NCBI RefSeq assembly: GCF_018476525.1
Contig: NZ_JAHCST010000078.1
Coordinates: 1-42,146, forward strand
DNA: 42,146 nt
Reading direction: 5' to 3'
Source of the DNA: Acrocarpospora catenulata
GTDB taxonomy: Bacteria; Actinomycetota; Actinomycetes; Streptosporangiales; Streptosporangiaceae
Shown: positions 14,779 to 35,492 of the stretch, piece after piece
Numbering within the stretch: position 1 is the stretch's first letter
Layout: every line of letters begins with the position of its first letter
Notes under the pieces: model-generated
Told to the model about the DNA's origin: nothing
What the model saw: only the letters and a program-made list of their open reading frames with translations
The model's database searches: none
Position numbers and translations under genes: made by a program

Positions 14779-16011
14779 TCAGAAATGGGTGTACGCCAGC
14801 TCGGTCACCGTGTAGTCGGCGTCGACGATCGGGATGACCCGCCACTTGTCGAAGGTCGTACACGGGTGGGAGATGCCGAACGCGACGACGTCGCCCACCG
14901 CGAGCGGCAGGTCCGCGGGCAGGGCGAGATAGGCGTGCTGGTCGTTGACGGCGGTCACCCGTAGCTCGCCGTCGAGCTGGGTGATCAGGCCGGTGCGGTC
15001 GCGCACCATGCGGGGCACCGGCAGCCCGTCGTCCGTGGAGGCGTCCCGACGGCCCAGCCCGGCCAGCGCCAGCGTCGGCTCGGGGCGGGACAGCACCGGC
15101 GCCCAGATCCGCAGCGCCTCGCGGAGCCGGTACGGTGCCCGGGGCAGGGCGCCGAACGGGGAGATCGCCTCGTAGCCACCGGCGTCATGGGTGACGTAGC
15201 ACCCGCTGCGCAGGACGGTCAGGAACGGTGTGCCGGCCAGGGCCGGCGCCAGTCGCTCCACCACCCGGTCGAAGTAGGCGCTGCCGCCCACGGTGACGAT
15301 CGGCGGCGGTCCGGCCCCGATCAGCCCGTCCGCGTACGCGGTGCGCGCCACGCCGGAGAGCCGGTCGAGGAGCCGGTCGACCAGCGCCAGGGTGCCGGTT
15401 AGGTCGGCTCCGCGCAGGATGCCCTCGAAAGCGGAGAATCCGGCCAGCCCCAGGGGGCCGCCCGCGATCCTGGCCGCCAGGGCGAGCGCGTCGCGGTCGT
15501 CGCGCAGACCGGTCCGTCCACCGGCCACCCCGAGCTCGACGAGAACCCGCGCTCGGCCGCGCAGGCCCGCGTCGATGCCGGTTTCCAGAGCGTGCAGCGC
15601 GGCCGGCGAATCGGCGTAGCAGTAGAGTTCGAGGTCGTCATGGCGTGCCAGCACGTCGTTGAGGAGCCGGAGCGAGCCGGGGTCGACGACGCAGTTGGCC
15701 AGCACCAGGCGGCGCACGCCCATGTCGGCCACCGTCCGGGCCTGCCACGCGGTCGCCACGGTGATCGCCCACGCCCCGGCCGCGAGCTGCCGTTCGATGA
15801 TCTGCGGGGACATCGTCGTTTTGCCGTGGGGGGCCAGCAGCACGCCGTTGGCCGCGCAGTACGCGGCCATCGTGGCGAGGTTGTGCTCGAGTTCGTCCCG
15901 CAGCAGCACGGCGGTGGGCAGCGGGAACGTGCCGTCGAAGAGCTGGGCTCCGCGCGGGTCGGCGACGTCGGGCAGCCCTTTCTCCGGCGTGACCTTCGGC
16001 TCATCCCGCAT
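14779..16011 (-). CDS. D-threonine aldolase / D-serine dehydratase-fold PLP enzyme
   Basis: A fold-type III PLP enzyme (alanine-racemase-like N-terminal barrel) of 410 residues. The Schiff-base lysine is Lys64 in APHGKT. The C-terminal metal site HPC (His382, Cys384) in GISHPCTTFDKW is the zinc site seen in D-serine dehydratases and metal-dependent D-threonine aldolases. It should deaminate or cleave a beta-hydroxy D-amino acid. Its start overlaps the end of the N-acyl-D-amino-acid deacylase gene by 11 bases. This strongly suggests that the deacylase releases the free D-amino acid that this enzyme consumes. The stop abuts the stop of the convergent subtilase (TGATCA). Dehydratase versus aldolase, and the exact substrate, cannot be told from sequence. 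Confidence 0.9.
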   Translation of the reverse strand: MRDEPKVTPEKGLPDVADPRGAQLFDGTFPLPTAVLLRDELEHNLATMAAYCAANGVLLAPHGKTTMSPQIIERQLAAGAWAITVATAWQARTVADMGVRRLVLANCVVDPGSLRLLNDVLARHDDLELYCYADSPAALHALETGIDAGLRGRARVLVELGVAGGRTGLRDDRDALALAARIAGGPLGLAGFSAFEGILRGADLTGTLALVDRLLDRLSGVARTAYADGLIGAGPPPIVTVGGSAYFDRVVERLAPALAGTPFLTVLRSGCYVTHDAGGYEAISPFGALPRAPYRLREALRIWAPVLSRPEPTLALAGLGRRDASTDDGLPVPRMVRDRTGLITQLDGELRVTAVNDQHAYLALPADLPLAVGDVVAFGISHPCTTFDKWRVIPIVDADYTVTELAYTHF

Positions 16012-17605
16012 GGCGCAGCACCTTTCCCGGACGGGCGGTGCCGAGCACGCCGTCCCGTACGACGATCTGACCGCCGACGACGGTCAGCGCGATCCCCACC
16101 GGCGCCTGCCGGGGCTGTTCGAAGGTGGCCCGGTCGGCCACCGTGGAGGGGTCGAAGGCGACCAGGTCGGCGACGAATCCCGGACGGATCTGCCCGCGAT
16201 CGCGTAGGCCGAGCCGGGCCGCCGGGGCGGCGGTCATCTTGTGTACCGCGTCGGGCCAGGCCAGCACGCCGAGTTCGCGCACGTAACGCCCCAGGACCCG
16301 GGCGTTGGTGCCGTAGGCGCGCGGGTGCGGCTGGTCGGCGCGGGCACGTAACGGCAGCGCGTTGCCGTCCGAGCCCACGATCGAGAGGCGATGGGCGAGG
16401 AACGCGGTCATGTCGGCCTCGGTGCGGTAGTGCAGCACCACCTGGGCCGCGCTGCCCAACTCGACGCACAGGTCGAGCAGGACCTCCTCGGGCGGCCGGC
16501 TCCGACGCCGGGCCACCTCGCCGATCGAGCTGCCGGGCAGGTCGTCGTACGGCCCGGCGGCGGTGATCACGATCCGGTCCCAGTGCCAGGGAATGCCGCC
16601 GAAGAAGCCGGCTCGGATGTCGCCAAGCGCGCGCTGCCGCCATGCGGCGTCGCCGGAGTGCCGGCGCAGCTCCGCGCTGCCGCCCCGCTGCACCCACTCG
16701 GGAAGGTACTGCACCAGTGCCGAGGACGAGGCGGCGTAGGGGTAGACGTCGAAGGCCACGTCGAGACCCTGCGCCTCGGCGGTGTCGAAGCGGGCGAGCG
16801 CGTCGGCGGCGCGGCCCCAGTAGGCGGGATCGTTCAGCGCGAGGTGGGAGAACTGCAGCCGCCCGCCGGTACGCCTGGCGGTGTCGACGGCCTCGTCTAC
16901 GGCCGCCAGCTCCCGGCCGGCCGAGGCCCGGGCGTGGGTGGCGTAGACGGCGTCGTGCGTGGCGCAGATCTCCACCAGCGCGGCCACCTCGCCGGGGTCG
17001 CCGAGTGAGGACGGCGTGTGGGTGAGCCCGGTGGACAGGCCGAACGCGCCGGCCGCGAGCGCGTCGTCGAGCAGGTGCCGCATGCGGGCGACGTCGGCGG
17101 TGGTGGCCGGCCCGTACGGGTCTTCCATCGCGGCGATCCGCAGCGCGCCGTGACCGGCGAGGGCGGCGACGTTGATGGCCGGTCGCGCGCCGGTCAGGGC
17201 CTCGGCGTACCCGTCGAAGTCGGTCCAGGTGACCGGGGCGGAGCCGTCGCCCAGGCGGGCGAGGTGGTCGGTCAGCAGGTGGTGGCGGGCCGGATGCACC
17301 GGGAAGGCCGAGTACCCGCAGTTGCCGACCACCTCGGTGGTCACCCCCTGCAGGGCCTTACTCTCGCCGCGCGGGTCGAGCAACAGGCTGACGTCCGAAT
17401 GGGTGTGGATGTCGATGAATCCGGGAGCGAGGGTGAGCCCGGTCAGATCGACCGTTTCGACCGCCGTGACACCGTTCTCCGGGGAGGCTCCGGGCGCCTC
17501 CAGGTGAGTGATCCGGTCCGCGGTCACCCCGATGTCGAGCCGGCGCTCCGGCGCGCCGGTGCCGTCCAGCACGGTGGCCCCGTGGAGCCACAGGTCGAAG
17601 GCCAT
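16001..17605 (-). CDS. N-acyl-D-amino-acid deacylase (D-aminoacylase)
   Basis: An amidohydrolase-superfamily enzyme of 534 residues that hydrolyses N-acyl-D-amino acids to the acid and free D-amino acid. It shows LAPGFIDIHTHSD with His67 and His69, the D-aminoacylase Cys (GNCGYS, Cys96, a zinc ligand in characterised D-aminoacylases), and the C-terminal signature KMTAAPAARLGLRDRGQIRPGFVADLVAFDP. Length and features fit the family with no truncation. No signal peptide is present, so the substrate must be imported. It follows the iclR gene after an 18-base gap and overlaps the aldolase/dehydratase gene, forming an iclR-deacylase-aldolase operon. Together with the transport operon at 20147 this points to a substrate that contains an acylated D-amino acid. 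Confidence 0.94.
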   Translation of the reverse strand: MAFDLWLHGATVLDGTGAPERRLDIGVTADRITHLEAPGASPENGVTAVETVDLTGLTLAPGFIDIHTHSDVSLLLDPRGESKALQGVTTEVVGNCGYSAFPVHPARHHLLTDHLARLGDGSAPVTWTDFDGYAEALTGARPAINVAALAGHGALRIAAMEDPYGPATTADVARMRHLLDDALAAGAFGLSTGLTHTPSSLGDPGEVAALVEICATHDAVYATHARASAGRELAAVDEAVDTARRTGGRLQFSHLALNDPAYWGRAADALARFDTAEAQGLDVAFDVYPYAASSSALVQYLPEWVQRGGSAELRRHSGDAAWRQRALGDIRAGFFGGIPWHWDRIVITAAGPYDDLPGSSIGEVARRRSRPPEEVLLDLCVELGSAAQVVLHYRTEADMTAFLAHRLSIVGSDGNALPLRARADQPHPRAYGTNARVLGRYVRELGVLAWPDAVHKMTAAPAARLGLRDRGQIRPGFVADLVAFDPSTVADRATFEQPRQAPVGIALTVVGGQIVVRDGVLGTARPGKVLRHAG

Positions 17606-17623
17606 GGGGACTCCCTTCCCGGA

Positions 17624-18388
17624 TCAGGTGAGCGCGTTGCCGAGCCCCGCGCACACCTCGAGCAGGCGCCGCCCCACCGTGGCCAGGGTCTCGTCGGTCA
17701 TGCGCGGGGTGGGCGCGGAGACGCTGATCGCGGCCACCGGCCGGCCCTCACCATCCAGGATGGGCGCGGCCACGCAGCGGGAGCCCACCTCGTTCTCCTC
17801 GTCGTCGATGGCGTAGCCGAGCCGGCGGAAGGGCCCAAGAGTCGCGAGCAGTTCCTCGACCGAATTGACGGCTTTGGGGGTGGGTTGCGACCAGTCGGCC
17901 TCGGCGAGTAGCTCGCGGGCCTGCTCCTCGGGGAGCGCGGCGAGGACCGCCTTGCCCAGCGCTGTGGTGTGCACCCGGTCGCGCAGCGCGATCTGCACCG
18001 TCGTGCGCAGCCGCTGGGGGCTCTCCACCGCGTCGAGGTAGACGACCTGGCCGTGGCTGACCACCCCGAGGTTGACGGTCTCGCCGAACTCCTCGTTGAG
18101 CGACTGCATGGCCGGGCGGGTCAGCCGGACCAGGTCGGTGGAGTTCCGCGCCGCCCGGCTCAGGCCGTAGAGCGCGGGGCCGAGCGAGTACTCCCGGCGC
18201 ACCTCGTCGCGCACCACGTAGCCCCGCTGGTCGAGGGTCTTGAGAATCCGGTACGCCGCCGGCTTGGTGATCCCGGTGTGCTGGCAGAGCTGGGCCACGG
18301 TACAGGGTGCGTCCGTCGCCATCCGGTCGAGGATGTCGAGCGCCTTGACGAGGACTCCGACCTCGTCGGACCGCCGTTCGCTGGTCAC
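17624..18388 (-). CDS. IclR family transcriptional regulator
   Basis: About 254 residues with an N-terminal winged HTH (VLVKALDILDRM...TVAQLCQHTGITKPAAYRILKTLDQRGYVVRD) and a C-terminal IclR effector domain (LGVVSHGQVVYLDAVES, TALGKAVLAALP, GYAIDDEENEVGSRCVAAPIL, AAISVSAP). I take GTG at 18388 as start. A TTG at 18397 is also possible; GGAAGGAG lies just upstream, 12 bases from the GTG and 3 from the TTG. The gene heads the minus-strand unit with the D-aminoacylase and aldolase genes, and is divergent from an M81 peptidase gene. The shared motif TCCG-N5-CGGA, found in that divergent promoter and in the 14-gene operon promoter, is its most likely operator. It probably represses the island until a breakdown product binds. 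Confidence 0.93.
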   Translation of the reverse strand: MTSERRSDEVGVLVKALDILDRMATDAPCTVAQLCQHTGITKPAAYRILKTLDQRGYVVRDEVRREYSLGPALYGLSRAARNSTDLVRLTRPAMQSLNEEFGETVNLGVVSHGQVVYLDAVESPQRLRTTVQIALRDRVHTTALGKAVLAALPEEQARELLAEADWSQPTPKAVNSVEELLATLGPFRRLGYAIDDEENEVGSRCVAAPILDGEGRPVAAISVSAPTPRMTDETLATVGRRLLEVCAGLGNALT

Positions 18389-18425
18389 CGGTACCAATGG
18401 CTCCTTCCGGGTGGATACCCCGTCA

Positions 18426-18454
18426 TTGCGAAGTCCGATATACGGAACTAGATT
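18426..18454 (+). promoter_or_regulatory. Promoter with central operator in front of the M81 gene
   Basis: -35 TTGCGA (18426-18431), 17-base spacer, -10 TAGATT (18449-18454). The spacer contains TCCG-ATATA-CGGA (18434-18446), the same 13-bp pattern as in the promoter at 20063-20130. A protein bound there would sit between the -35 and -10 boxes and block polymerase. The site also lies upstream of the divergent iclR gene, so self-regulation is likely. Confidence 0.65.
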
Positions 18455-18493
18455 TCGCTTATCGTACACCTGGCTGATCGGAAGGGCAAAGTG

Positions 18494-20011
18494 ATGACGG
18501 TTCGGATCGGGCTGGGCGGAATCTGGCAGGAGACGAACACCTTCGCAGTCGAGCCCACCACATTGGCGGACTTCCGTCAGTACCAGTTCTTCGAGGGCGG
18601 GGAACTGGTGGCCTCGCTCCGTGGGACGGGCACTGAGCTGGGCGGGGCCATCGACGCGGCCCGGCGGCGGTCGGCAGATCCGGTGGGGCTGTTCTTCGGT
18701 GCCGCGCTGCCCTCCGGAATGGTGCGGTCGCGGGCGTTCGAGTCGATGTTGCGCCGGCTGACCGCCCTCACCCGGGCTCAGCTTCCCCTCGACGGACTGG
18801 TGCTGTCGCTGCACGGTGCGATGGTGGTCGACGGCCATCCGGACCCCGAGGCGGAGATCGTCACGGCGCTCCGTGCCGTCGTCGGCGACATCCCGATCGC
18901 CGCCACGCTGGACTACCACGCGAACATCGGCGCCACCCTGCCCGAGGTCACCGACATCCTGGTCGGCTACCGCACCTATCCGCACGTGGACATGGCCGAA
19001 CGCGGCGCGGAGGCGATGGAGGCGGTGCTGCGCCTGCTGCGCGCGCCGTGGCGGGGACGCCGCCCGGCCCGGCACCTGGAGAAGCTTCCGCTGCTCACGG
19101 TGCCCCCGTCCCAGGAGGACGTGGCCGAACCGATGCGGTCCATCCTCGCCGCGGCCGACCAGTTACGCGCCGAGCCCGGCGTCTGGGCCGCCAGCGCGCT
19201 GCCCGGGTTCGCCTACGCCGAGAGCGACCGGCTCGGGTTCGCGGTGTACCTAGCGGCGGAGACGCACGCGGTGGCGCGCGCCCGGGAGCTGGCCGCCCAT
19301 GTGTGGCGGGAGCGTGCGGCGTTCTCCGCGCCGCTGGTCAGCCCGGCCGAGGCGGTGGCCAGGCTGGCCGGCGTCCGGGGGCGGGGGCCCACCGTGCTGG
19401 TCGACGTGGCGGACAACGTGGGCGGCGGCTCACCGGGCGACGGTACGGCGCTGCTCCACGCGCTGGCCCAAGCCGGCGTTTCCGGCGCCATCGCGGTCAT
19501 CTGGGATCCGGCCGCGGTGGCCGCGGCGCACGCGGGGTCCGCCGACCGGATGGAGTTGCGGGTGGGCGGCCACAGCGACCCGGTGATGGGGCCGCCGTTC
19601 CGCGCGGCCGGGCCGGTCCGCCGCTTCGGCGCCGTGTCGTACCTGCGTACCGGCTCGTACATGCGCGGTCAGCGGGTGGAGATGGGCCGGGTGGCGGTGA
19701 TCGAGGCGCCGATCGGCGCGATCGTGCTGACCGAGAACCGGGTGGTCCCGTTCGATGACGATCATCTGCGCGCGCTGGACCTGGCGCCGCGCGGCGCTCG
19801 CGTGATCGTCGCCAAGGGGGCCATCGCGTGGAAGGCCGCGTTCGCCGGATACGCCGCACAGACCGTTTACGTCCGTACTCCGGGTTACTGTCCGGCCGCG
19901 CTCGACCAGCTCGACTACCGGTCCCGCCCGGCACCGCTCTACCCGCTGGAACGGGACCCGGCCTGGGAATCCGCCGTGGCCACCGGGCTGACCTCGGGGA
20001 ACCTTCCGTAA
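18494..20011 (+). CDS. M81 family (MlrC-like) metallopeptidase, copy A
   Basis: About 505 residues of the M81/MlrC family. MlrC, the named member, hydrolyses the linear product of microcystin breakdown; most family members have unknown amide substrates. I choose ATG at 18494 (GAAGG about 8 bases upstream) over the adjoining GTG at 18491 because the second copy in this island begins the same way (M-x-VRI...QETNTF). The N-terminal domain has LDYHANIG and GYRTYPHVDMAERG, carrying the likely metal ligands. The C-terminal domain has the family motif DVADNVGGGSPGDGT. No signal peptide is present, so it acts in the cytoplasm. It stands alone between its own promoter, carrying an operator, and the promoter of the 14-gene operon. 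A role in cutting an amide bond of the imported substrate is inferred. Confidence 0.9.
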   Translation: MTVRIGLGGIWQETNTFAVEPTTLADFRQYQFFEGGELVASLRGTGTELGGAIDAARRRSADPVGLFFGAALPSGMVRSRAFESMLRRLTALTRAQLPLDGLVLSLHGAMVVDGHPDPEAEIVTALRAVVGDIPIAATLDYHANIGATLPEVTDILVGYRTYPHVDMAERGAEAMEAVLRLLRAPWRGRRPARHLEKLPLLTVPPSQEDVAEPMRSILAAADQLRAEPGVWAASALPGFAYAESDRLGFAVYLAAETHAVARARELAAHVWRERAAFSAPLVSPAEAVARLAGVRGRGPTVLVDVADNVGGGSPGDGTALLHALAQAGVSGAIAVIWDPAAVAAAHAGSADRMELRVGGHSDPVMGPPFRAAGPVRRFGAVSYLRTGSYMRGQRVEMGRVAVIEAPIGAIVLTENRVVPFDDDHLRALDLAPRGARVIVAKGAIAWKAAFAGYAAQTVYVRTPGYCPAALDQLDYRSRPAPLYPLERDPAWESAVATGLTSGNLP

Positions 20012-20062
20012 CCTGCCTGGTCACAACTCGGTACCAGTCGAAGATCGCGACACGTCGAGTGA

Positions 20063-20092
20063 TTGACACAGCCGTTCCGGCCTTCCTAATTT
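20063..20092 (+). promoter_or_regulatory. Promoter of the 14-gene catabolic operon
   Basis: A consensus -35 TTGACA (20063-20068), 18-base spacer and -10 TAATTT (20087-20092). Transcription should begin near 20099, inside the first copy of the operator-like repeat. It is the strongest promoter match in the window and lies directly in front of the binding-protein gene. Confidence 0.75.
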
Positions 20093-20093
20093 G

Positions 20094-20130
20094 GTCCGCA
20101 TAGCAAAAACGTAGTCCGCATAGCGGACTA
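20094..20130. promoter_or_regulatory. Operator of the 14-gene operon (palindrome plus upstream half-copy)
   Basis: TAGTCCGC-ATA-GCGGACTA (20112-20130) is a perfect palindrome with 8-bp arms. Exactly 20 bp upstream, GTCCGCATAGC (20094-20104) repeats its left part. The core TCCG-CATAG-CGGA (20115-20127) has the same arms and spacing as the site at 18434-18446. Both copies lie just downstream of the -10 box, over the transcription start, the usual place for a repressor. IclR binding is inferred. Confidence 0.75.
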
Positions 20131-20146
20131 ACCCTAAGGGGTAGCA

Positions 20147-21358
20147 ATGCCTGACACGTCGAAGGGCCTGGGCCAGTTCAACCGGCGCGATCTCCTGCGC
20201 CTCAGCGTCATCACCGGAGCCGGGATCGCTGTCGGCGCCCCGCTACTCAGCGCATGTTCGGTCGACAGCGGGACGGGCTCGGGCACGGAGCAGAGCTCCG
20301 CACCGGGCGCCGCCACCCAGAAAGCGATCGGCAACGGCCTCACCGAGAAGAAGGAGCTGGCACCCTTCCAGTTCGGCGGCCCGGCGGGCGAGAAGCCCGA
20401 CATCCCCCAGCGGATCGCCTGGGCCAACACCTCCGACGCCGAGTTCTTCCTGCAGATCACCCAATCCATCCAGCTGGCCGCCACCGCCCGCGGGCTGGAG
20501 TTCGTGACGGCGATCGCCAACGACGACTCGGCCAAGAACGTCGAGCAGATCGAGACCTTCCTGCAGCGCGGCATCGGCGCGCTGTGCATCCAGCCGCTGG
20601 ACGCCAACGCCCAGGCGCCGCTGATGAAGCGCGCGATCGAGGCGGGCGCCGCCGTGATGTCGCTGGTGACCCCGCCCAGCACCTCACAGGCCGTCGCCGA
20701 CCAGTACAAGGTCGGGAACACCCAGGGGCTGGCCGCCGCCAAGTACATCACCGAGAAGCTGGGCGGCAAGGCCAACGCCGTCTATTTCAACATCGACACC
20801 ATCGAGGTGCTCAAGGCCCGGCACCAGGGCGTGCTGGACGGCCTGAAGACCGCCGGACCGGATGTGAAGATCATCGCCGACGTGCAGCCGCCGGCCCTCA
20901 CCCAGGATGGCGGCTTCAAGGCGATGAACACCATCCTGCAGGCCCACCCCGACGTCAACGTCGTCGTGGGCGGTGACACGCACTGCCTGGGCGCGCTCTC
21001 GGCGCTGCAGGCCGCCGGCAAGGACCGGCCGGACATGTACCTGTCCGGGATCGACGGCGACGAGCAGGCCCTGGCCGAGATCCGCAAGGGCGGAGCGTAC
21101 AAGGCCAGCTTCGCCTTCGCCTACCCGTTGATGGGCTACGCCTGGGGACAGTTCGCGGCGGACTGGCTGGAGGGCAAGCCGATCCCTCAGGTCATGCAGT
21201 TCAACGCCATCGAGCTCAACTCGGCCGAGACCATCGACAAGTACCAGGCCGACATGAAGGCGGTGGCCGAGACCTGGAAGAACGCCGGCACGTACTTCAC
21301 GCTGCTGGGCTCCATCCGCTACCAGGAACGGGACCAGTTCATCAACTACGCCGCCTGA
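20147..21358 (+). CDS. Sugar-type ABC transporter substrate-binding lipoprotein
   Basis: A 403-residue solute receptor of the ribose/RbsB class (periplasmic-binding-protein domain 4). The N-terminus has a twin-arginine motif NRRDLLR (Arg13-Arg14), a hydrophobic stretch and the lipobox LSAC with Cys37, so it is exported folded by Tat and anchored to the membrane. The ligand-binding part shows PQRIAWANTSDAEFFLQITQS, GIGALCIQPLDANAQAP, an NVVVGGD segment and a typical hinge near the end. AAGGGG lies five bases before the ATG. It is the first gene of a 14-gene operon and is followed after 23 bases by the permease-ATPase fusion, its cognate transporter. The ligand should be a sugar or sugar conjugate; the enzymes downstream suggest one bearing a D-amino acid or amino group. 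Confidence 0.93.
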   Translation: MPDTSKGLGQFNRRDLLRLSVITGAGIAVGAPLLSACSVDSGTGSGTEQSSAPGAATQKAIGNGLTEKKELAPFQFGGPAGEKPDIPQRIAWANTSDAEFFLQITQSIQLAATARGLEFVTAIANDDSAKNVEQIETFLQRGIGALCIQPLDANAQAPLMKRAIEAGAAVMSLVTPPSTSQAVADQYKVGNTQGLAAAKYITEKLGGKANAVYFNIDTIEVLKARHQGVLDGLKTAGPDVKIIADVQPPALTQDGGFKAMNTILQAHPDVNVVVGGDTHCLGALSALQAAGKDRPDMYLSGIDGDEQALAEIRKGGAYKASFAFAYPLMGYAWGQFAADWLEGKPIPQVMQFNAIELNSAETIDKYQADMKAVAETWKNAGTYFTLLGSIRYQERDQFINYAA

Positions 21359-21381: not shown

Positions 21382-23235
<1,854 letters not shown>

Positions 23236-26521: not shown

Positions 26522-27291
26522 TGCCGGCAGGGTCATTGGCGGGCCGGGTGGCCCTGGTGACCGGGGCGGCCGGCGGCATCGGCCGCCAGATCGCGCGGCG
26601 GCTGGCGGCCGACGGCGCGGCGGTCGCGGTCAACTACCACCCGGCGGCGGACGAGGAGACCGCCGCCGAGGAGCTGGTCCGGGAGATCGGCGCGGACCGG
26701 GCCACCGCGATCCCCGCCGACGTGTCCGACCCGGATCAGGTCGCGGAACTGGTGAGCACGGCCCGCGACCGGTTGGGGCCGGTCTCGGCGCTGGTGTGCA
26801 ACGCGGCGACGTCGGTGGCCGCGCGGGGCGACTGGCGGCGGCTCACCGCCGAGGACTGGGCACGGGTGCTCGCGGTCAACGTCACCGGCGCCTTCCTCTG
26901 CGTCCAGGCGGCCTATCCCGACCTGGCCGCCGGCGGCCACGGCGCGGTGGTGGTGATGTCGTCGGTCACGCCGCTGCTCGGCCGGACCGGGAACCTGCAC
27001 TACGTGACCTCCAAGGCCGCGCTGATCGGGCTGACCCGGGCGCTGGCCCGGGAGTCCGGCCCGGACGGCGTACGGTTCAACGCCATCGCGCCCGGCGCGA
27101 TCCGTACCCCGGCGGAGGCGGTGTACGGCGGCGAGGCCGAACTCGCCGCGGACCTGGCGGCCGTGCAGTCGCTGCGCCGGCGCGGCGAACCGGCGGACGT
27201 GGCGGCGGCGACGAGCTTCCTGCTGAGCGAGGACGCCTCGTTCGTGACCGGGCAACTGCTGGTCGTCGACGGTGGCTGGGTGATGCACTGA
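26521..27291 (+). CDS. SDR family oxidoreductase B
   Basis: A 256-residue classical SDR: TGAAGGIG cofactor loop, VNYHPAADEE after beta-2 (as in FabG-like NADP enzymes), CNAA in place of NNAG, VMSSVTPLLG with the catalytic Ser and YVTSK with Tyr/Lys. FVTGQLLVVDGGW ends the domain. It resembles 3-oxoacyl-ACP-reductase-like enzymes, but the catabolic operon argues for a sugar or hydroxy-acid substrate. Start and stop are shared with neighbours: ATG overlaps the enolase stop by one base, and its TGA overlaps the next ATG by one base, so translation is tightly coupled. The Asn-to-Cys change in NNAG is tolerated in some SDRs. Confidence 0.91.
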   Translation: MPAGSLAGRVALVTGAAGGIGRQIARRLAADGAAVAVNYHPAADEETAAEELVREIGADRATAIPADVSDPDQVAELVSTARDRLGPVSALVCNAATSVAARGDWRRLTAEDWARVLAVNVTGAFLCVQAAYPDLAAGGHGAVVVMSSVTPLLGRTGNLHYVTSKAALIGLTRALARESGPDGVRFNAIAPGAIRTPAEAVYGGEAELAADLAAVQSLRRRGEPADVAAATSFLLSEDASFVTGQLLVVDGGWVMH

Positions 27292-28793: not shown

Positions 28794-29833
28794 ACTCCAG
28801 ACCAGCCCCGCTGCTGCTGGCGGACAACCGGATACCGGTCTACTACGCGGGCGGCGAGCGGATCAGCGAGTTCCGGGGCGGCGGCGACTCCCCGACCGGC
28901 CCTGAGGACTGGGTCGGCTCGCTGACCGCCCTGCCCGCCGCCCTCCTGCCACCCGGATATCCGCAGGACACGGGCGTCTCGCGGACCGACCGCGGCTCGC
29001 TTCGCGACCTGGTGAAAGCCGCCCCACAGGCCTGGCTGGGGGAGGAACTGGCCGCCGCCCACGGCGCCGAGAGCGGACTGCTGGTCAAGCTGCTCGACGC
29101 GGGCGAACGGCTGCCGGTGCACTGCCACCCGACCCGCGACTTCGCCCGGGCCCATCTGGGCAGCCGGTTCGGCAAGACCGAGGGCTGGATCGTGCTGGCC
29201 GCCGCGCCCGGTGCCCGGGTCTGGCTCGGCCTGCGCGAGCGGGTCGCCGCCGAGGAGCTCCGGCGCTGGATCACGGCCCAGGACAGCACCGCCATGCTCG
29301 CCGCGATGAACGAGATCCCGGTGACCGCCGGCCAGGTGTTCTACGTTCCCGCCGGGCTGCCGCACGCGATCGGCGCGGGCGTGATGGTGACCGAACTGCA
29401 GGAACCGACCTCGTTCTCGGTCCTCGCCGAGCACGACGCGTTCGGGCTGGGATCGGCGGCGGCGACCCTGGGACTGGGCTGGGATCTCGCGCTGACCTGC
29501 TTCGACCTGAACGGCTACGCCGACCGGCTCGGCGAGCTGATGCCGGCCTCCCGTGATCTGCGGTCGTCCTCCGGCGGCCGGCTGCGCAGCCTCTTCCCCG
29601 CCGACGCGGACGCCTACTTCCGCGCCTGGCAGGCGGAGTGCACCGAGGATCTGGCCCTGCCGGGCGCCGGATTCGCCGTCCTCGTCGTCACCGGCGGCGC
29701 GGGCACACTGGTCTGGAACGGCGGGGAAACCCCCATCGCGCGCGGCCAGACGCTGGTGGTGCCCGCCGCGGCCGGACCGCTGTGCCTGCGGGGCACAGTC
29801 CGGGTGATCGCCTGCCTGCCGCCGGAGTGCTGA
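28790..29833 (+). CDS. Type I phosphomannose-isomerase-like cupin (ManA family)
   Basis: A 347-residue protein of the class I mannose-6-phosphate isomerase fold. Zinc ligands are conserved: His111 and His113 (LPVHCHP), Glu131 (FGKTEGW) and His192 (PAGLPHAIG). It is shorter than E. coli ManA (391 residues). The surrounding operon has no sugar kinase, so an aldose-ketose isomerisation of an unphosphorylated sugar or amino sugar is more likely than the classical reaction. The start ATG shares ATGA with the preceding stop, and its own TGA shares one base with the next ATG. Binding of sugar without isomerisation is also possible. Confidence 0.88.
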   Translation: MNSRPAPLLLADNRIPVYYAGGERISEFRGGGDSPTGPEDWVGSLTALPAALLPPGYPQDTGVSRTDRGSLRDLVKAAPQAWLGEELAAAHGAESGLLVKLLDAGERLPVHCHPTRDFARAHLGSRFGKTEGWIVLAAAPGARVWLGLRERVAAEELRRWITAQDSTAMLAAMNEIPVTAGQVFYVPAGLPHAIGAGVMVTELQEPTSFSVLAEHDAFGLGSAAATLGLGWDLALTCFDLNGYADRLGELMPASRDLRSSSGGRLRSLFPADADAYFRAWQAECTEDLALPGAGFAVLVVTGGAGTLVWNGGETPIARGQTLVVPAAAGPLCLRGTVRVIACLPPEC

Positions 29834-30726
29834 TGGACCTCGGCCGCCTGCCCCGCCTCCCCGCGCGTACCGTACAGGTCGTCGACAGCCGGTGCGCGCT
29901 GGGAGAGAGCCCGCTGTGGCTGCCCGGCACCGCGGAACTCCGCTGGGTCGACGCGGTACGCGGTGAGTTGCACACGCTGGGTCCGGGCGGGCACCAACGA
30001 CGGCCGGTCGTGACCGGGGTGCTCAGTGCGATCGCCGCCGACACCGGCGGCGGCCTGGTGCTCACCGCCGACCGGCGGGTCCTGCGTACGGCAGGGCCGG
30101 GCGGACCGGCCACCGAGCTCGCGCGAATCCCCGACCAGCCCCCTGGGATACGGTTCAACGACGCGAAGGCAGGCCCGGACGGCCGGCTCTGGGCCGGCAC
30201 GGTCTGCCCGGGACAGCCGAACACCGCCGCCCTGTGGTCGATCGGCCCCACCGGCGACACCGTCCGGCACTGGTCCGGAATCAGCCACGGCAACGGCATC
30301 ACCTGGAACCCGTCCGGCGACACGATGTTCTTCGTCGACAGCGGCGAACGGACCGTGTCCCGCGCCGCGTTCTCCAGCGACGGCGGGGTCGGGGCCGGCG
30401 AGGTCATCGCTCGCATCCCCGACGGCATCCCCGACGGCCTGACCGTGGACGCCCAGGCCGACCTGTGGCTCGCCGTCTGGGGTGGCGGCTGTCTGGTACG
30501 GCTGCGCGCCGACGGCACCCCGGTCGGACGGGTCGACCTGCCCGACCGGAACGTCACCTCATGCGCCTTCGCCGGACCCGACCTCGGCCTGCTCGCGGTG
30601 ACCACCGCCGCGGACGACGTCGACCCGGCCGGTGGCGGGGGATCGGTCTACCTGCTGGATGTCGGCCGGCACGGCGTCCCCGGCCATCTGTTCGGCGCGA
30701 CCGCGGAAAGGAGCGGTGAGCAGTGA
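29833..30726 (+). CDS. SMP-30/gluconolactonase family lactonase
   Basis: A 297-residue six-bladed propeller of the SMP-30/gluconolaconase/LRE-like family, which opens sugar lactones using one divalent metal. The ligand motifs are visible in order: CALGESPLW with the metal Glu, RFNDAKAGPDGRLWAGT with Asn and substrate residues, HGNGITWNPSGDTMFFVDSG with the metal Asn, and PDGLTVDAQADLWLA with the metal Asp. It should act after a dehydrogenase turns the sugar into a lactone, delivering the acid for the enolase-superfamily dehydratase encoded earlier in the operon. ATG at 29833 is chosen because it shares one base with the preceding TGA; the upstream in-frame extension lies inside the previous gene. 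The stop overlaps the next GTG by four bases. Confidence 0.92.
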   Translation: MDLGRLPRLPARTVQVVDSRCALGESPLWLPGTAELRWVDAVRGELHTLGPGGHQRRPVVTGVLSAIAADTGGGLVLTADRRVLRTAGPGGPATELARIPDQPPGIRFNDAKAGPDGRLWAGTVCPGQPNTAALWSIGPTGDTVRHWSGISHGNGITWNPSGDTMFFVDSGERTVSRAAFSSDGGVGAGEVIARIPDGIPDGLTVDAQADLWLAVWGGGCLVRLRADGTPVGRVDLPDRNVTSCAFAGPDLGLLAVTTAADDVDPAGGGGSVYLLDVGRHGVPGHLFGATAERSGEQ

Positions 30727-31760
30727 GTATGCGACAGGTGTGGATCAACGGGCCTGAGCTGGCCGAGGTGCGCGAAGTGCCGATCTGCCGGCCGGCGGAG
30801 GGCGAGGTCCTGGTACGCATGGCCTACGCCGGCATCTGCGGCTCGGACCTGCACACACTGCGGCGCGGGCATCCCTGGCTGCCCTACCCCATCGCGCCGG
30901 GCCACGAGGCGTCCGGCGTGGTCGCCGAGATCGGTCCCGGCACGTCCGGTCTCGCGGTCGGTGACGCCGTCTACCTCCGCCCGGCCCTGCACTGCGGACG
31001 GTGCTTCTACTGCCGCCGCGGCCGGGAGAACCTGTGCGCCAACCTGATCGGGATCGGCTCGCACCGGCCCGGCGCGTTCGCCGACTACTTCACGGTGCCG
31101 CACGCCGCGCTCGCCCCGGTCCCCGCCGGGGTCGGCCTGGGGGCGGCGGCGATGACCGAGCCGCTGGCCACCGCAGTGCACGCCGTCGCCCTGGCGGCCG
31201 GGCGCGGCGGGCGGCTGGACGGGTGCACGGCCGCCGTGCTCGGCGGCGGCACGATCGGGCAGTGCGTGCTGCTCGCGGCGCTCGACGCGGGGGCCGCCGC
31301 GGTGGCGGTCACCGATCCTGTCCCGGGCAAGCGGGCGCTGGCCACCCGGCTGGGCGCGGTGGCGGCCCTGGACGCGGCCGACCCGGCACTCGAATCCGGC
31401 CTCGCCGAGGTGCTCGGCGGCCGTCCGGACGTGGTCTTCGACTGTGTGGCGACCGCCGGCTCGCTGGGGGTCGCGATCTCGCTGTCCTCGCGTGGCGGCA
31501 GCGTGATCGTCGTCGGCGTCGGCCACGGTCCGCTGGAGGTCGCCATCGAGGTTATCCAGGACCAGGAGATCCGCATCGCCGGCTCGGCCATGTACGTACC
31601 CGGCGACTTCACCGCCGCGGAGCGGCTCATCGCCGCCGGAGCGCCGGTCGACCGGCTCGTCACCTCGATCCGTCCGGTCGGCGACGCGCCGGACGCGCTG
31701 CGCACCGCCGCCACCGGCGCCGAAGTCAAGATCCACCTGTCCGGCCCGGCCGCCGGCTGA
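30723..31760 (+). CDS. Zinc-type medium-chain dehydrogenase A
   Basis: A 345-residue sorbitol/threonine-dehydrogenase-like MDR. The catalytic zinc site has Cys in AGICGSDLH, His-Glu in APGHEASGVV and the TEPLATAVHAV segment; the structural zinc lobe has four Cys (CGRCFYCRRGRENLC). The Rossmann domain shows AVLGGGTIGQCVL. It probably oxidises a sugar or polyol hydroxyl with NAD(P)+. GTG at 30723 overlaps the lactonase stop by four bases and has GGAAAGGAG about 9 bases upstream; the ATG at 30729 is an alternative. It is one of three MDR genes in a row, which are too different to be simple tandem copies. Confidence 0.92.
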   Translation: MSMRQVWINGPELAEVREVPICRPAEGEVLVRMAYAGICGSDLHTLRRGHPWLPYPIAPGHEASGVVAEIGPGTSGLAVGDAVYLRPALHCGRCFYCRRGRENLCANLIGIGSHRPGAFADYFTVPHAALAPVPAGVGLGAAAMTEPLATAVHAVALAAGRGGRLDGCTAAVLGGGTIGQCVLLAALDAGAAAVAVTDPVPGKRALATRLGAVAALDAADPALESGLAEVLGGRPDVVFDCVATAGSLGVAISLSSRGGSVIVVGVGHGPLEVAIEVIQDQEIRIAGSAMYVPGDFTAAERLIAAGAPVDRLVTSIRPVGDAPDALRTAATGAEVKIHLSGPAAG

Positions 31761-31780
31761 TCGTTGGAGGAGGAAACCCG

Positions 31781-32875: not shown

Positions 32876-32885
32876 GGGGGAGCCA

Positions 32886-33884
32886 ATGCACGCCGTGGTG
32901 GTAGAGGCGCCGGACCGCCTCGCCGTGACCCAGGTGCCCGATCCGGCGCCGGCGCCCGACGGCGTGGTGATCGCCGTCCGTTCGTGCGGCATCTGTGGCA
33001 CCGACCTGCACCTGGTCAGCGGCGACCTCGGGGTGGACCGGCTGCCGCTGATCCCCGGGCACGAACCGTACGGCGAGGTGGTCGCGGTCGGTGCCGAGGT
33101 AGGCGGGTACGCGGTGGGCGACCTCGTCGCCGTGGACCCGTCGCTGCACTGCGGCCGGTGCGACCCATGCCGGCGGGGGCAGGGCAACATGTGCCTGCGG
33201 TGGGGTGCGCTCGGCGCCACCAGGCCCGGCGCGTGGGCCCAGTTCGCCGCGGTGCCCGAGGCCAACCTGTACCGCCTGCCGGAGTCGTTCCCCCTGGAGG
33301 CGGCCCCGCTGGCCGAACCGGTGGCCTGCGCGGTTCGCGGCCTGCACCGGTTGAACCCCCGGCCCGACGAGCCCGCGATCGTCTTCGGGGCCGGCACGAT
33401 GGGGCTCATCCTGGCGATCATGCTCGACTCGCGGGGCGTCGGGCCGGTGACCGTGGTGGACATCAACCCGGCCAGGCGGGAACTCGCCGAACGGCTGACC
33501 GGCGCGCGCGCCTGCGACCCCGAGGAAGCCGCGGGGCTGCGGGCGCCGTGGGTGATCGAGGCGACCGGCAGCCCGCGGGCGTTCGCGCAGGCCCTCGACT
33601 GCGTGGCGCGCGCCGGCCATCTGCTGGTCTTCGGCGTCGCCTCGCCGCAGGCCACGGCCGCGGTGTCGCCGTACCGGATCTACGCCGACGAGTTGACCAT
33701 CGTGGGTTCGATGGCCATCCTGAACAGCTTTCCCCCGGCCATCGACGTCATCCGCCGTCACGCGGCCCGGCTGGCACCGCTGGTCACCGACAGGTTCGAG
33801 CTGGATCGGATCGACGACGCGCTGGCCCTGGTACGGTCCGGCCGGACCGTCAAGACCGTGCTCACCCCGGAGGTACGGCCGTGA
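32886..33884 (+). CDS. Zinc-type medium-chain dehydrogenase C
   Basis: A 332-residue MDR of the polyol/threonine dehydrogenase group: CGICGTDLHLVSG and IPGHEPYGEV for catalytic zinc, CGRCDPCRRGQGNMC for structural zinc, AEPVACAVRGLHRL, and the cofactor loop VFGAGTMGLILAIM followed by VVDINPARRE, whose Asp indicates NAD. The catalytic His is intact, unlike MDR B. GAGGGGGA lies just upstream of the ATG. Its TGA overlaps the GTG of the next SDR by four bases. With MDR A it offers two independent oxidation steps for sugar or amino-sugar intermediates. Confidence 0.92.
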   Translation: MHAVVVEAPDRLAVTQVPDPAPAPDGVVIAVRSCGICGTDLHLVSGDLGVDRLPLIPGHEPYGEVVAVGAEVGGYAVGDLVAVDPSLHCGRCDPCRRGQGNMCLRWGALGATRPGAWAQFAAVPEANLYRLPESFPLEAAPLAEPVACAVRGLHRLNPRPDEPAIVFGAGTMGLILAIMLDSRGVGPVTVVDINPARRELAERLTGARACDPEEAAGLRAPWVIEATGSPRAFAQALDCVARAGHLLVFGVASPQATAAVSPYRIYADELTIVGSMAILNSFPPAIDVIRRHAARLAPLVTDRFELDRIDDALALVRSGRTVKTVLTPEVRP

Positions 33885-34624
33885 CCGGGCGTACGATCTT
33901 GATCACCGGAGCCCGCCGGGGCATCGGGGCGGCGCTCGCCGAGGGCTTGGCGGAGCCGGGCGTCACGCTGGTGCTTCACCACCTGGCCGCCGAGCAGGAG
34001 ACCGCCGAGGTGGCGCGGCACTGCACGGAGGCGGGCGCGAAGGTGCGGATCGTCGAGGCCGACCTGACCGAGCCGACCGCGGTATCGGCGTTGGCGGACC
34101 AGGCCGGCGCGGTCGACATCCTGATCAACAACGCGGCCAGAGCCTCGAACGTGACCCCCGACGAGCTGTCGCCGGCCGAGTGGCAGGCGACCTTCGCGGT
34201 GAACGTGACCGCCCCGATGCTGCTGGCGCAGGCGCTGGCCGGCGGGATGCGGACACGGGGCTGGGGGCGGGTGATCAACATCACCTCGGCCACGGTACGG
34301 CTGGCCGGCCCCTCCGGACCGGCCTACGTCGCCAGCAAGGCGGCGCTGGTCGGGCTGACCCGGTCGCTGGCGCGGGCGTGGGGCCCGGACGGCATCACGG
34401 TCAACGCGATCTCGCCAGGCGCGATCAAGACAGCGAGCGAAGTCGAACTCGCCGACGGCCGTGACCAGGCCGAACTGGACGCCGACGTGATCGCCCGGCA
34501 GACGATGCGCCGCCGGCTGGTGCCGGCCGACCTGGTCGCGGCGGCGCGTTTCCTGGCCGGTGACGGCGCCGCCGGAGTCACCGGCCAAGTGATCGAGGTC
34601 GGCGCCGGCCTCGTCTACCGCTGA
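33881..34624 (+). CDS. SDR family oxidoreductase C
   Basis: A 247-residue classical SDR: TGARRGIG at the cofactor loop, LHHLAAEQE after beta-2, NNAA for NNAG, INITSATV with Ser and YVASK with Tyr/Lys, and the C-terminal GVTGQVIEVGAGL. It lies directly before the FAH-family hydrolase. In the L-fucose and L-rhamnose diketo-hydrolase routes an SDR oxidises the 2-keto-3-deoxy acid to a 2,4-diketo-3-deoxy acid, which the FAH-like enzyme then cleaves. SDR C is the best candidate for that step here; assignment by context only. Start GTG at 33881 overlaps the preceding stop by four bases with GGAGG about 9 bases upstream. Confidence 0.91.
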   Translation: MTGRTILITGARRGIGAALAEGLAEPGVTLVLHHLAAEQETAEVARHCTEAGAKVRIVEADLTEPTAVSALADQAGAVDILINNAARASNVTPDELSPAEWQATFAVNVTAPMLLAQALAGGMRTRGWGRVINITSATVRLAGPSGPAYVASKAALVGLTRSLARAWGPDGITVNAISPGAIKTASEVELADGRDQAELDADVIARQTMRRRLVPADLVAAARFLAGDGAAGVTGQVIEVGAGLVYR

Positions 34625-34643
34625 CCCCGAAAGGAGAAGTGCC

Positions 34644-35492
34644 TTGTACCTCATGCGCATCGGCGCAACCGGCGCCGAGAAGCCGGTCGTCCGCGTCGAT
34701 GAGTCCCACTACATCGACGTCTCGGACGTCACCCCCGATTTCGACGAGCGTTTCTTCGCCGCAGGCGGCACCGCGCTGCTGGCCGACCGGGTCGCCCGGG
34801 GCGATGTGCGGGCGTTCGCCGGCGAGCGGGTCGGCGCGCCGATCGCCCGGCCGCACCAGATCCTCTGCATCGGCCTGAACTACAGCGACCACGCCGCCGA
34901 GACCGGCCAGGCCGTCCCGGCCGAGCCGATCCTGTTCACCAAGTCGCCCAACACCCTGATCGGCCCGTACGACGAAGTGCGCATCCCGCGTGGCGCGTCC
35001 AAGACCGACTGGGAGGTGGAGTTGGGCGTCGTCATCGGCCGCCGCACCTCCTACCTGGACTCGCCGGAGGAGGCCGCTGACGCGATCGCCGGATACTGCG
35101 TGGTCAACGACGTCAGCGAGCGCGCCTTCCAGCTGGAGCGCGGCGGCCAGTGGAGCAAGGGCAAGTCCGCCGAGACGTTCAACCCGGCCGGGCCGTGGCT
35201 GGTCACCCCGGAGGAGGTCCCCGATGTCAGGAACCTCGGCATGTGGCTGGAGGTCAACGGGGTGCGCCGCCAGACCGGCACCACCAAGACCATGATCTTC
35301 GACCCGTACGTGATCGTGCACCACCTGAGCCAGTTCATGGTGCTGGAGCCCGGCGACCTCATCAACACCGGCACCCCGCCCGGCGTCGGCATGGGCCACA
35401 ATCCGCCCATCTGGCTCCAGCCCGGCGACGTCATGGAACTCGGCATCGACGGGCTGGGCAGCCAGCGCCAGCAGGTCGTAGGACCCCGGTAG
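34644..35492 (+). CDS. FAH-family hydrolase, 2,4-diketo-3-deoxy-acid hydrolase-like
   Basis: A 282-residue fumarylacetoacetate hydrolase family protein. It has ILCIGLNYSDHAAETG, FTKSPNTLIGPYDEV, the metal-binding ESW-type WEVELGVVIGR, CVVNDVSERAFQ, GGQWSKGKSAETFNPAGPWL and NTGTPPGVGMG. The QLERGGQWSKGKS... stretch is typical of the subgroup with 2,4-diketo-3-deoxy-L-fuconate hydrolase, which yields pyruvate and a hydroxy acid. Start TTG at 34644 has AAGGAG seven bases upstream. It is the last gene of the operon; the convergent aldehyde dehydrogenase gene ends only 19 bases away and no hairpin is seen. Cleavage of the final diketo acid is the expected role. Confidence 0.93.
   Translation: MYLMRIGATGAEKPVVRVDESHYIDVSDVTPDFDERFFAAGGTALLADRVARGDVRAFAGERVGAPIARPHQILCIGLNYSDHAAETGQAVPAEPILFTKSPNTLIGPYDEVRIPRGASKTDWEVELGVVIGRRTSYLDSPEEAADAIAGYCVVNDVSERAFQLERGGQWSKGKSAETFNPAGPWLVTPEEVPDVRNLGMWLEVNGVRRQTGTTKTMIFDPYVIVHHLSQFMVLEPGDLINTGTPPGVGMGHNPPIWLQPGDVMELGIDGLGSQRQQVVGPR

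What the first reader, a model, noticed from the sequence alone, without database searches (positions are those of the whole stretch)
14779..35492. An 18-gene catabolic island, apparently for a sugar (acid) conjugated to an acylated D-amino acid
Seen: iclR, D-aminoacylase and a fold-III PLP enzyme on one strand; an M81 peptidase; and a 14-gene operon of sugar-type ABC transporter, SDRs, MDRs, class III aminotransferase, enolase-superfamily dehydratase, second M81 peptidase, PMI-like cupin, SMP-30 lactonase and FAH-family hydrolase. Known: D-aminoacylases release free D-amino acids; DSD/D-threonine aldolase enzymes consume them; SMP-30 plus enolase-superfamily dehydratase plus SDR plus FAH hydrolase make up non-phosphorylated sugar-acid routes. 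Inference: one substrate holds both parts, for example an opine-like, muropeptide-like or aminouronate-amino acid conjugate. I know of no characterised pathway with this exact set, in particular two M81 enzymes with a PMI-like protein.
Basis: partly seen in the sequence, partly recalled or inferred. Interest (0 to 1): 0.8.

Follow-up and report, generated by a model that had tools for sequence, protein, structure and literature searches.

The report
Transferable amino-sugar catabolic gene island
A 20.7-kb block of 18 genes, moved as a unit between soil actinobacteria, probably lets them take up and burn an unidentified nitrogen-bearing sugar by a route that combines a known amino-sugar-acid scheme with two unexplained metallopeptidase-like enzymes.

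Summary
In detail: 18 intact genes at the stated coordinates, forming a discrete inserted island (14779-35493). The 4 other same-genus genomes searched lack it at this site.

The two halves belong together here. The D-aminoacylase/PLP unit and the sugar operon are linked in 7 of 7 islands with enough flank, and IclR-type palindromes lie in both control gaps (7 of 7 and 6 of 7).

A sugar-amino acid conjugate is not required. Deacylase plus fold-III PLP deaminase is also the ong arrangement, where a 2-acetamido-2-deoxy sugar acid is itself the N-acyl-D-amino acid and ends as a 2-keto-3-deoxy sugar acid. Related clusters carry families that could consume such acids (FAH, KdgD-like, DHDPS, PfkB).

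Best reading: a non-phosphorylative pathway for an N-acylated amino sugar or its acid, with aminotransferase and M81 enzymes handling a further nitrogen or amide. The deacylase is not a plain OngB: it scores closer to amino-acid deacylases, and a lysine reported as strictly conserved is Ala in its clade.

Substrate unknown. New variant of a known kind.

The parts
14779..16011 (-). fold-III PLP enzyme, D-serine deaminase/dehydratase-like (DSD)
   Evidence: Pfam PF14031 68 bits; best solved relative 3gwq D-serine deaminase 249 bits; Lys in APHGKTT and HPC motif present (motif roles recalled)
16001..17605 (-). D-aminoacylase-family amidohydrolase (DAA), divergent clade
   Evidence: Pfam PF07969; solved relatives N-acyl-D-Glu deacylase 277 bits, D-aminoacylase 276, PpOngB 243; SHLA in place of SHLK/SHHK at OngB Lys254
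17624..18394 (-). IclR-family regulator (BhcR/KdgR-like); start codon inferred
   Evidence: PF01614, PF09339; NF045644 203 bits, cut-off 350
18432..18446 (.). IclR-type palindrome AGTCCGATATACGGA in the iclR-M81a gap
   Evidence: site found by pattern in 6 of 7 islands, degenerate in L086; AGTCCGN5CGGA, a pattern chosen after seeing the sites, gives 3 matches at 2 places, 0.31 expected, 0 of 100 shuffles reach 3
18491..20011 (+). M81 metallopeptidase-family protein a
   Evidence: PF07364 279 bits, PF07171 142 bits; zinc ligands of MlrC (E, D, H, H) aligned
20095..20130 (.). tandem operator-like site: half-site TCCGCATAGCAAA and palindrome AGTCCGCATAGCGGACTA
   Evidence: half-site and palindrome conserved upstream of the SBP gene in 7 of 7 islands, the centre of the palindrome varying
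20147..21358 (+). ribose-type sugar-binding lipoprotein (lipobox read by eye)
   Evidence: PF13407 122 bits; sugar/ribose-binding proteins nearest in PDB
21382..23235 (+). fused sugar ABC permease plus single ATPase domain
   Evidence: PF02653 at 49-312 and PF00005 at 383-537 of 617 aa
23237..24004 (+). SDR 1 (gluconate 5-dehydrogenase-like)
   Evidence: PF13561; NF006070 227 bits, cut-off 279
24018..25316 (+). class III aminotransferase, HemL-like (AT3)
   Evidence: PF00202 196 bits; NF000818 360 bits, cut-off 398; best PDB 4zm3
25313..26521 (+). enolase-superfamily sugar-acid dehydratase (ENO), glucarate-dehydratase-like
   Evidence: PF13378 191 bits; KFK, D, E, N and D/H motifs present (their roles recalled)
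26521..27291 (+). SDR 2
   Evidence: PF13561 214 bits
27291..28793 (+). M81 metallopeptidase-family protein b
   Evidence: PF07364 259 bits; MlrC solved relative 7ylq 172 bits
28790..29833 (+). type I phosphomannose-isomerase-like cupin
   Evidence: TIGR00218 52 bits, cut-off 116; model pLDDT 94.7 matches 1qwr at E 1.2e-23; H111, H113, E131, H192 invariant in 23 of 23 aligned, window included
29833..30726 (+). SMP-30/gluconolactonase-type lactonase (variable cargo)
   Evidence: PF08450 180 bits; not at this place in 4 of 7 islands
30723..31760 (+). MDR 1, zinc alcohol dehydrogenase
   Evidence: PF08240, PF00107
31781..32875 (+). MDR 2, NDMA-dependent-type alcohol dehydrogenase-like
   Evidence: TIGR03989 312 bits, cut-off 440
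32886..33884 (+). MDR 3, zinc polyol/threonine dehydrogenase-like
   Evidence: PF08240, PF00107; all NCBIfam matches below cut-off
33881..34624 (+). SDR 3
   Evidence: PF13561 164 bits
34644..35492 (+). FAH-family hydrolase, 2,4-diketo-3-deoxy-rhamnonate hydrolase-like (variable cargo)
   Evidence: PF01557 243 bits; NF053535 322 bits, cut-off 500; best PDB 8gsr 257 bits, next 165

Best explanation
The island encodes uptake and non-phosphorylative oxidative breakdown of an N-acylated amino sugar (or its acid), under one IclR regulator. A ribose-type ABC transporter brings it in. SDR/MDR enzymes, the PMI-like isomerase and, where present, the SMP-30 lactonase turn it into a sugar acid. The D-aminoacylase homologue removes an acyl group and the fold-III PLP enzyme eliminates the amino group, giving a 2-keto-3-deoxy sugar acid. 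The enolase-superfamily enzyme makes the same kind of acid from the hydroxy form. An SDR oxidises C4 and FAH splits the product to pyruvate and a smaller acid. M81 enzymes and the class III aminotransferase remove a further amide and amine. Shown here: gene content, linkage, conserved operator-like sites, the empty site and identity contrast, intact motifs. Inferred: transfer, regulation, every reaction and their order.
For: Halves linked in 7 of 7 islands with flank, with an IclR-type palindrome in both gaps (7 of 7 at SBP, 6 of 7 at iclR-M81a). Deacylase plus fold-III deaminase is the published ong arrangement for GlcNAc1A (PMC9537276, passages and section 13). The window loop YPYAASSS equals that of PpOngB. 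In other actinobacteria, DAA-DSD sits with a PfkB-family kinase in 5 of 5 gene-called loci and with RidA in 3 of 5. Downstream partners differ but fit 2-keto-3-deoxy acids: FAH here, a KdgD-subfamily protein in L105 (378 bits, subfamily cut-off 278; KdgD equivalog 296, cut-off 374), a DHDPS-family protein in L017. A GH20 hexosaminidase-family gene lies beside the same deacylase clade in L106 (Pfam) and L111 (80% identical). The dehydratase has the glucarate-dehydratase motif set.
Against: The deacylase scores closer to N-acyl-D-glutamate deacylase and D-aminoacylase than to OngB (277, 276, 243 bits; N-acyl-D-glutamate deacylase also first in Foldseek). Its clade lacks OngB Lys254; the window also has His at Tyr194 and Ser at Glu226. 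The SSS loop is not unique to OngB: it occurs in K. pneumoniae D-acylase 9g5m. No RidA, kinase or glycosidase is in the island. The window DSD does not group with the DSD of the PfkB-linked loci (weak support). Modules are separable: ENO-M81b/AT3 without the deacylase, AT3-M81 pairs without either. M81 and AT3 have no assigned step with evidence. The binding protein resembles plain sugar/ribose binders.
Confidence: 0.5

Rival explanations
1. The substrate is a true conjugate: a sugar acid or amino-uronate joined by an amide to an acylated D-amino acid (for example a peptidyl-sugar or nucleoside-antibiotic-like compound). M81 cuts the conjugate, the deacylase and PLP enzyme consume the D-amino acid, and the operon consumes the sugar.
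For: Two M81 peptidase-family genes per island (6 relatives plus the window, and both also in L013); the known M81 enzyme MlrC cuts amide bonds with the same zinc ligands; the halves are linked and share operator-like sites; the deacylase is nearest in score to amino-acid deacylases.
Against: The transporter is monosaccharide-type; the deacylase lost a lysine reported to bind the alpha-carboxylate of N-acyl-D-amino acids; a single amino sugar acid explains the set more simply.
Confidence: 0.2
2. The island is a regulon of two parallel pathways: D-amino acid scavenging on one side and a non-phosphorylative aldonate/aldarate route on the other, brought together by one regulator because both feed pyruvate.
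For: The modules occur apart elsewhere: ENO-SGL-FAH in L010 and L015, ENO-SGL in L011, DAA-DSD in Streptomyces-like loci, AT3-M81 alone; OngC also deaminates D-serine and D-threonine (PMC9537276, section 13).
Against: The deacylase clade tracks M81 and AT3 (7 of 10 loci each) while other D-aminoacylases do not (M81 0 of 26, AT3 3 of 26); the block appears to have moved as one.
Confidence: 0.2
3. The substrate carries its nitrogen in or next to the sugar ring (iminosugar or diamino sugar). Oxidation gives a sugar lactam, an M81 enzyme opens it, AT3 removes the freed amine, a gluconate-5-dehydrogenase-like SDR reduces the ketone, and ENO dehydrates the resulting aldonate.
For: Fits class III aminotransferase, SDR1 nearest gluconate 5-dehydrogenase (227 bits, cut-off 279) and a glucarate-dehydratase-like ENO; M81-AT3 groups with SGL, SDR2 or RidA recur without the deacylase.
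Against: No enzyme assay or structure seen here shows M81 opening a lactam; the chemistry is my construction; one literature search with related terms (first 10 of 54 listed) showed nothing on point.
Confidence: 0.1

Closest known systems
ong pathway for oxidised chitin (OngB deacetylase, OngC deaminase, KdgK, OngD RidA)
   Same: D-aminoacylase-fold deacylase beside a fold-III PLP deaminase and a regulator; OngB loop YPYAASSS matched by the window
   Different: Deacylase lacks Lys254 and scores nearer amino-acid deacylases; no kinase or RidA; ribose-type ABC transporter; adds enolase-superfamily dehydratase, M81, aminotransferase and FAH
Non-phosphorylative L-rhamnose/L-fucose diketo-hydrolase route (lactonase, dehydratase, dehydrogenase, LRA6-type FAH hydrolase; pathway order recalled)
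   Same: SMP-30 lactonase, enolase-superfamily dehydratase, SDRs and an FAH protein nearest 8gsr
   Different: Dehydratase is glucarate-dehydratase-like, not rhamnonate dehydratase (NF011968 46 bits, cut-off 393); FAH below its equivalog cut-off; amine-handling genes added
Microcystin degradation enzyme MlrC (M81)
   Same: Same family and zinc ligands
   Different: 145 and 163 bits against a cut-off of 999; sugar operon context; mlrA and mlrB were not searched for by name
Jiangella-type clusters with M81, AT3, DAA, DSD, SDR2, IclR in varying subsets (L104-L111; family name inferred from one contig length)
   Same: Same core enzymes, deacylase clade with the Lys254-to-Ala change
   Different: Deacylase 48-50% identical, at most one M81 within the stretch, no SBP or PMI-like match at the threshold used

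Membership tests
ong (GlcNAc1A) catabolic cluster | D-aminoacylase-fold deacylase with subtype-V metal ligands (Cys/His/His) and catalytic Asp | tested here: met
   HTH, GNC, H and GSDG present in window and clade; fold matches 9kb1 at TM 0.82/0.92
ong (GlcNAc1A) catabolic cluster | strictly conserved anchoring residues Lys254 and Tyr194 (PMC12017989, passages) | tested here: not met
   Ala at Lys254 in 17 of 17 clade members with that region (window included); His at Tyr194 in the 7 islands, Tyr in the other 10
ong (GlcNAc1A) catabolic cluster | Ser292 in place of Thr | tested here: inconclusive
   Ser present, but also in K. pneumoniae D-acylase 9g5m
ong (GlcNAc1A) catabolic cluster | Gln298 | tested here: inconclusive
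   PDB alignment ends at OngB residue 294; counting on without a gap, the window has Gln two places earlier
ong (GlcNAc1A) catabolic cluster | KDG kinase and RidA in the cluster | tested here: not met
   no PfkB or RidA family among the 18 genes
ong (GlcNAc1A) catabolic cluster | activity on GlcNAc1A | not testable with these tools
   needs an enzyme assay
L-rhamnose/L-fucose diketo-hydrolase pathway | FAH hydrolase over the NF053535 cut-off | tested here: not met
   322 bits, cut-off 500; still the closest curated family
L-rhamnose/L-fucose diketo-hydrolase pathway | rhamnonate-type dehydratase | tested here: not met
   NF011968 46 bits, cut-off 393
D-glucarate dehydratase | TIGR03247 cut-off | tested here: not met
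   164 bits, cut-off 829; catalytic motif set present (roles recalled)
M81 metallopeptidase family | Pfam DUF1485 plus MlrC_C domains and zinc ligands | tested here: met
   both domains over cut-off in both proteins; ligands
Microcystinase MlrC | NF041767 cut-off 999 | tested here: not met
   145 and 163 bits
Type I phosphomannose isomerase | fold | tested here: met
   Foldseek 1qwr E 1.2e-23, TM 0.75/0.82
Type I phosphomannose isomerase | manA equivalog cut-off and Gln metal ligand (ligand set recalled) | tested here: not met
   52 bits, cut-off 116; His in place of Gln in 23 of 23 aligned sequences, window included

The most novel reading that the evidence does not exclude
The island and its M81-AT3 relatives define an undescribed catabolic route for sugars with a ring or second nitrogen, in which M81 proteins, best known as the microcystin peptidase MlrC, act as hydrolases of sugar amides or lactams, and a D-aminoacylase clade without the carboxylate-binding lysine deacylates an amino sugar rather than an amino acid.
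Probability: 0.2. Interest if true: 0.8.

Novelty: new variant of a known kind. Interest (0 to 1): 0.55.

Why it matters
If right, it extends the ong idea (amino sugars broken down through D-amino acid chemistry) from marine chitin degraders to a mobile actinobacterial island. It would also offer a function for M81 enzymes outside microcystin degradation and name a deacylase clade with a clear residue marker. The conserved palindromes, the single binding protein and the empty site make the substrate question directly testable.

Tried and rejected
Considered and dropped: plain chitin/GlcNAc1A catabolism (Lys254 lost, no kinase or RidA); L-rhamnose or L-fucose route (dehydratase not of that family); microcystin degradation (MlrC cut-off far missed); beta-hydroxyaspartate cycle (BhcC 62 bits, cut-off 690; BhcR 203, cut-off 350); the flanking ALDH as a member (present beside the site in same-genus genomes without the island).

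Led nowhere: plasmid search for the PMI-like protein (no match) and for M81b (one unannotated record); PMI-like contexts (L088-L099 show only ABC/SBP-type hits and scattered AT3, IclR, SDR, MDR or subtilase hits); paper searches on M81 with aminotransferase, D-aminoacylase or catabolism; an iminosugar search and a search on the rhamnonate route, listings only. The gene calling is a rough GC-frame caller and misses or misplaces some genes; tblastn placements were used for counts.

Results against significance: TCCGCATAGCGGA with up to 3 mismatches (23 matches, 13 of 100 shuffles reach it) and TCCGC-N3-GCGGA (29 of 100 shuffles) are not significant. The pattern that is was chosen after the sites were seen. 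The strict 18-base pattern occurs once in the genome, but the reversed control pattern also gave one hit.

Sampling limits: one search used 34 stretches holding 36 of the 84 non-own D-aminoacylase places (14 near the top, not strictly the best 14, and 20 chosen down the list), plus 2 plasmid loci. Before the 0-of-26 count I dropped L001 (the window itself) and the second copy in L112, which shares a locus with a clade member; L133 holds two copies and counts once; L122, L124, L135, L102 and L103 are shorter than the rest. RidA counts rest on one query and are lower bounds: RidA in L131, L132 and L137 was missed there and found by Pfam. Loci are related to each other, so no p-value is given.

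Full report
Observation. Minus strand: DSD-like PLP enzyme, D-aminoacylase (DAA), IclR. Plus strand: M81a, then SBP, fused ABC, SDR1, class III aminotransferase (AT3), enolase-superfamily dehydratase (ENO), SDR2, M81b, PMI-like cupin, SMP-30 lactonase (SGL), MDR1, MDR2, MDR3, SDR3, FAH. No listed NCBIfam match of these proteins reaches its curated cut-off, so the labels are family labels. Catalytic motifs are present where checked; my strict SDR pattern failed on SDR1, whose sequence reads SYFASKH at that place.

A discrete inserted island. In the same-genus genome G002, 4 bases separate the subtilase end (window 14778) from the ALDH end (window 35512). The other three same-genus genomes also lack the island there: the gap is 474 bases in G004, 421 in G001 and 5.5 kb in G003, with no island-protein match in the first two and only an ABC match of 34% and a short LuxR match in the third. 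Homology with the island of genome G297 runs from 14776 to 35493. Identity is 93.3% in the main 17.3-kb aligned block, while the ALDH gene matches that genome at 78.5% and same-genus genomes at 82-83%. I read this as horizontal transfer between genera. No mobility family was found among the 18 genes, and no repeat was evident by eye in the junctions printed. All 18 genes have dN/dS 0.15-0.42 against G297 and no stops.

Distribution. M81b at E at most 1e-60 is in 3 of 341 same-family genomes, own included, and in none of the 4 other same-genus genomes (4 candidates scored per genome). ENO at E at most 1e-100 is in 1 of 296 phylum genomes, the own one. The named genome collection gave close ENO relatives (85-88%) in Micromonospora echinofusca, Phytohabitans flavus, P. 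maris, P. suffuscus, Paractinoplanes rishiriensis and one MAG (best 80 of 148 relatives kept), so the host is probably a Micromonosporaceae (inferred).

Do the halves belong together? Yes in this family. DSD-DAA-IclR-M81a is linked to the operon in the window, L084, L086, L005, L006, L007 and L009, that is 7 of 7 with enough flank. L004 and L008 are cut by contig ends. SGL is exactly missing between PMI and MDR1 in L005, L006, L007 and L009, and FAH is not found behind SDR3 there; other places of those genomes were not searched. G382 has lost most of MDR3 and SDR3 and shows no FAH match; by eye the sequence after the SDR3 end begins like the FAH start. So 16 genes are core and two are cargo. 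Further away the halves separate: L012-L018 keep subsets of ENO, AT3, SDR2, M81b and PMI with no DAA in the DNA held (L012 and L014 are short contigs); L010 (9 kb) and L015 keep ENO (79%), SGL and FAH, and L011 ENO and SGL.

Regulation. The gap between iclR and M81a and the gap between M81a and SBP carry the same type of palindrome. It is found by pattern in 7 of 7 islands at the SBP gap and 6 of 7 at the iclR gap; L086 has a degenerate copy there. A second half-site upstream of SBP is also conserved. AGTCCGN5CGGA, chosen after seeing the sites, has 3 matches at these two places in the window and none elsewhere, against 0.31 expected, and 0 of 100 shuffles reach 3. Looser patterns are not significant. 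The strict 18-base form occurs only here in the genome, but a reversed control pattern also gave one hit. The conservation across islands is the stronger evidence. Binding by this IclR is inferred.

The deacylase. The window DAA lies in a clade (FastTree support 1.0) with the six island orthologues and ten others, L104-L113. The clade members have Ala where PpOngB and D-aminoacylases have Lys254, a residue said to bind the alpha-carboxylate and to be strictly conserved (PMC12017989, passages read; the position checked by counting). Another group, the DSD-linked Streptomyces-like loci, has Thr there, so the lysine is not universal. OngB Tyr194 is His in the islands and Tyr in the ten others; OngB Glu226 is Ser in the window. 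The loop YPYAASSS is identical to PpOngB 285-292, but K. pneumoniae D-acylase 9g5m has YPYSASSS, so this is weak evidence. By phmmer the window protein is closer to N-acyl-D-glutamate deacylase (277 bits) and D-aminoacylase (276) than to OngB (243). The AlphaFold model (pLDDT 94.7) matches all three with similar TM-scores, N-acyl-D-glutamate deacylase first.

Neighbours of that clade outside the islands, within 9 kb, 10 loci: M81 7, AT3 7 (L113 at 31%), IclR 6, DSD 5, RidA 5, GH20 2. Other D-aminoacylases, 26 loci: M81 0, AT3 3 (32-40% identity), DSD 8. In G460 (L111) an M81 and an AT3 lie 13 kb or more away, in L160. L105 also has a DHDPS-family protein over the 5-dehydro-4-deoxyglucarate dehydratase subfamily cut-off (378 against 278 bits) but under the KdgD equivalog cut-off (296 against 374), beside an ENO relative. 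In 5 gene-called DAA-DSD loci of other actinobacteria, a PfkB-family kinase is present in 5 and RidA in 3. That is close to the composition of the ong cluster described in PMC9537276 (passages and section 13). The curated KDG-kinase cut-off is not reached by the one tested, L132 (158 against 400 bits). In a DSD tree of 15 the window groups with L084, then with L113 (support 0.55), apart from those PfkB-linked loci.

M81 and AT3. In 148 class genomes, M81 at E at most 1e-30 occurs in 17, own included. In the 20 non-own short loci, AT3 (45-50%) is adjacent in 9. In 16 of these 20 places fetched wider, AT3 is present in 9, IclR in 7 and SGL in 5; RidA lies between M81 and AT3 in L161. So M81-AT3 is a recurring pair that can live without the deacylase. 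M81 zinc ligands E39, D167, H169 and H191 of MlrC (PMC9982164, passages; one passage prints H196 for H191) are kept in both window proteins. What M81 hydrolyses here is unknown.

Other enzymes. FAH is closest to L-2,4-diketo-3-deoxyrhamnonate hydrolase 8gsr (257 bits, next 165) but under its NCBIfam cut-off. The PMI-like protein has the type I PMI fold with His in place of the recalled Gln ligand in 23 of 23 aligned sequences, window included.

Conclusion. Its conjugate idea is one option. I favour an N-acylated amino sugar or its acid, degraded without phosphorylation through a 2-keto-3-deoxy acid (confidence 0.5). The substrate and every reaction remain inferred. Paper searches that bear on novelty; none listed a pathway with this set, but the library holds open papers only and the listings were capped.

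Noticed in passing
window 21382-23235: Sugar ABC permease and a single ATPase domain fused in one 617-aa protein; matched over one place in the island relatives.
   Followed up: no
window 14779-35511; L176-L179: The island's site between two convergent gene ends is empty in G002 (4 bases) and holds 421-474 bases or 5.5 kb of other DNA in the three other same-genus genomes; no mobility family in the island, so the mechanism of insertion is unknown.
   Followed up: partly
L158, L159, L161, L163-L166, L168: Recurring M81-AT3 pairs (RidA between them in L161), most with IclR, SGL or SDR2, without the deacylase.
   Followed up: partly
L128, L131, L132, L136, L137: ong-like clusters in other actinobacteria: deacylase, PLP deaminase and PfkB kinase in all five, RidA in three; an amino-acid permease family gene sits beside the one in L128.
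   Followed up: partly
L088-L099: A PMI-like subfamily with His in place of the usual Gln metal ligand (recalled), beside ribose-type ABC matches in several; function unknown.
   Followed up: partly
L112, L113: Related DAA-M81-DSD clusters in genomes of about 1.5 Mb; L112 carries two deacylase copies and an aminotransferase 63% identical to the window's.
   Followed up: no
L010, L011, L015: ENO 79% identical to the window's with SGL (and FAH in L010 and L015); in L015 with aldose epimerase, RraA-like and amino-acid-permease-family genes: probably a separate sugar-acid pathway.
   Followed up: partly
L086/L087: Island copy in G382 at another locus with a decayed 3' end.
   Followed up: yes
L106, L111: GH20 hexosaminidase-family genes near the Lys254-less deacylase clade, hinting at amino-sugar substrates.
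   Followed up: partly
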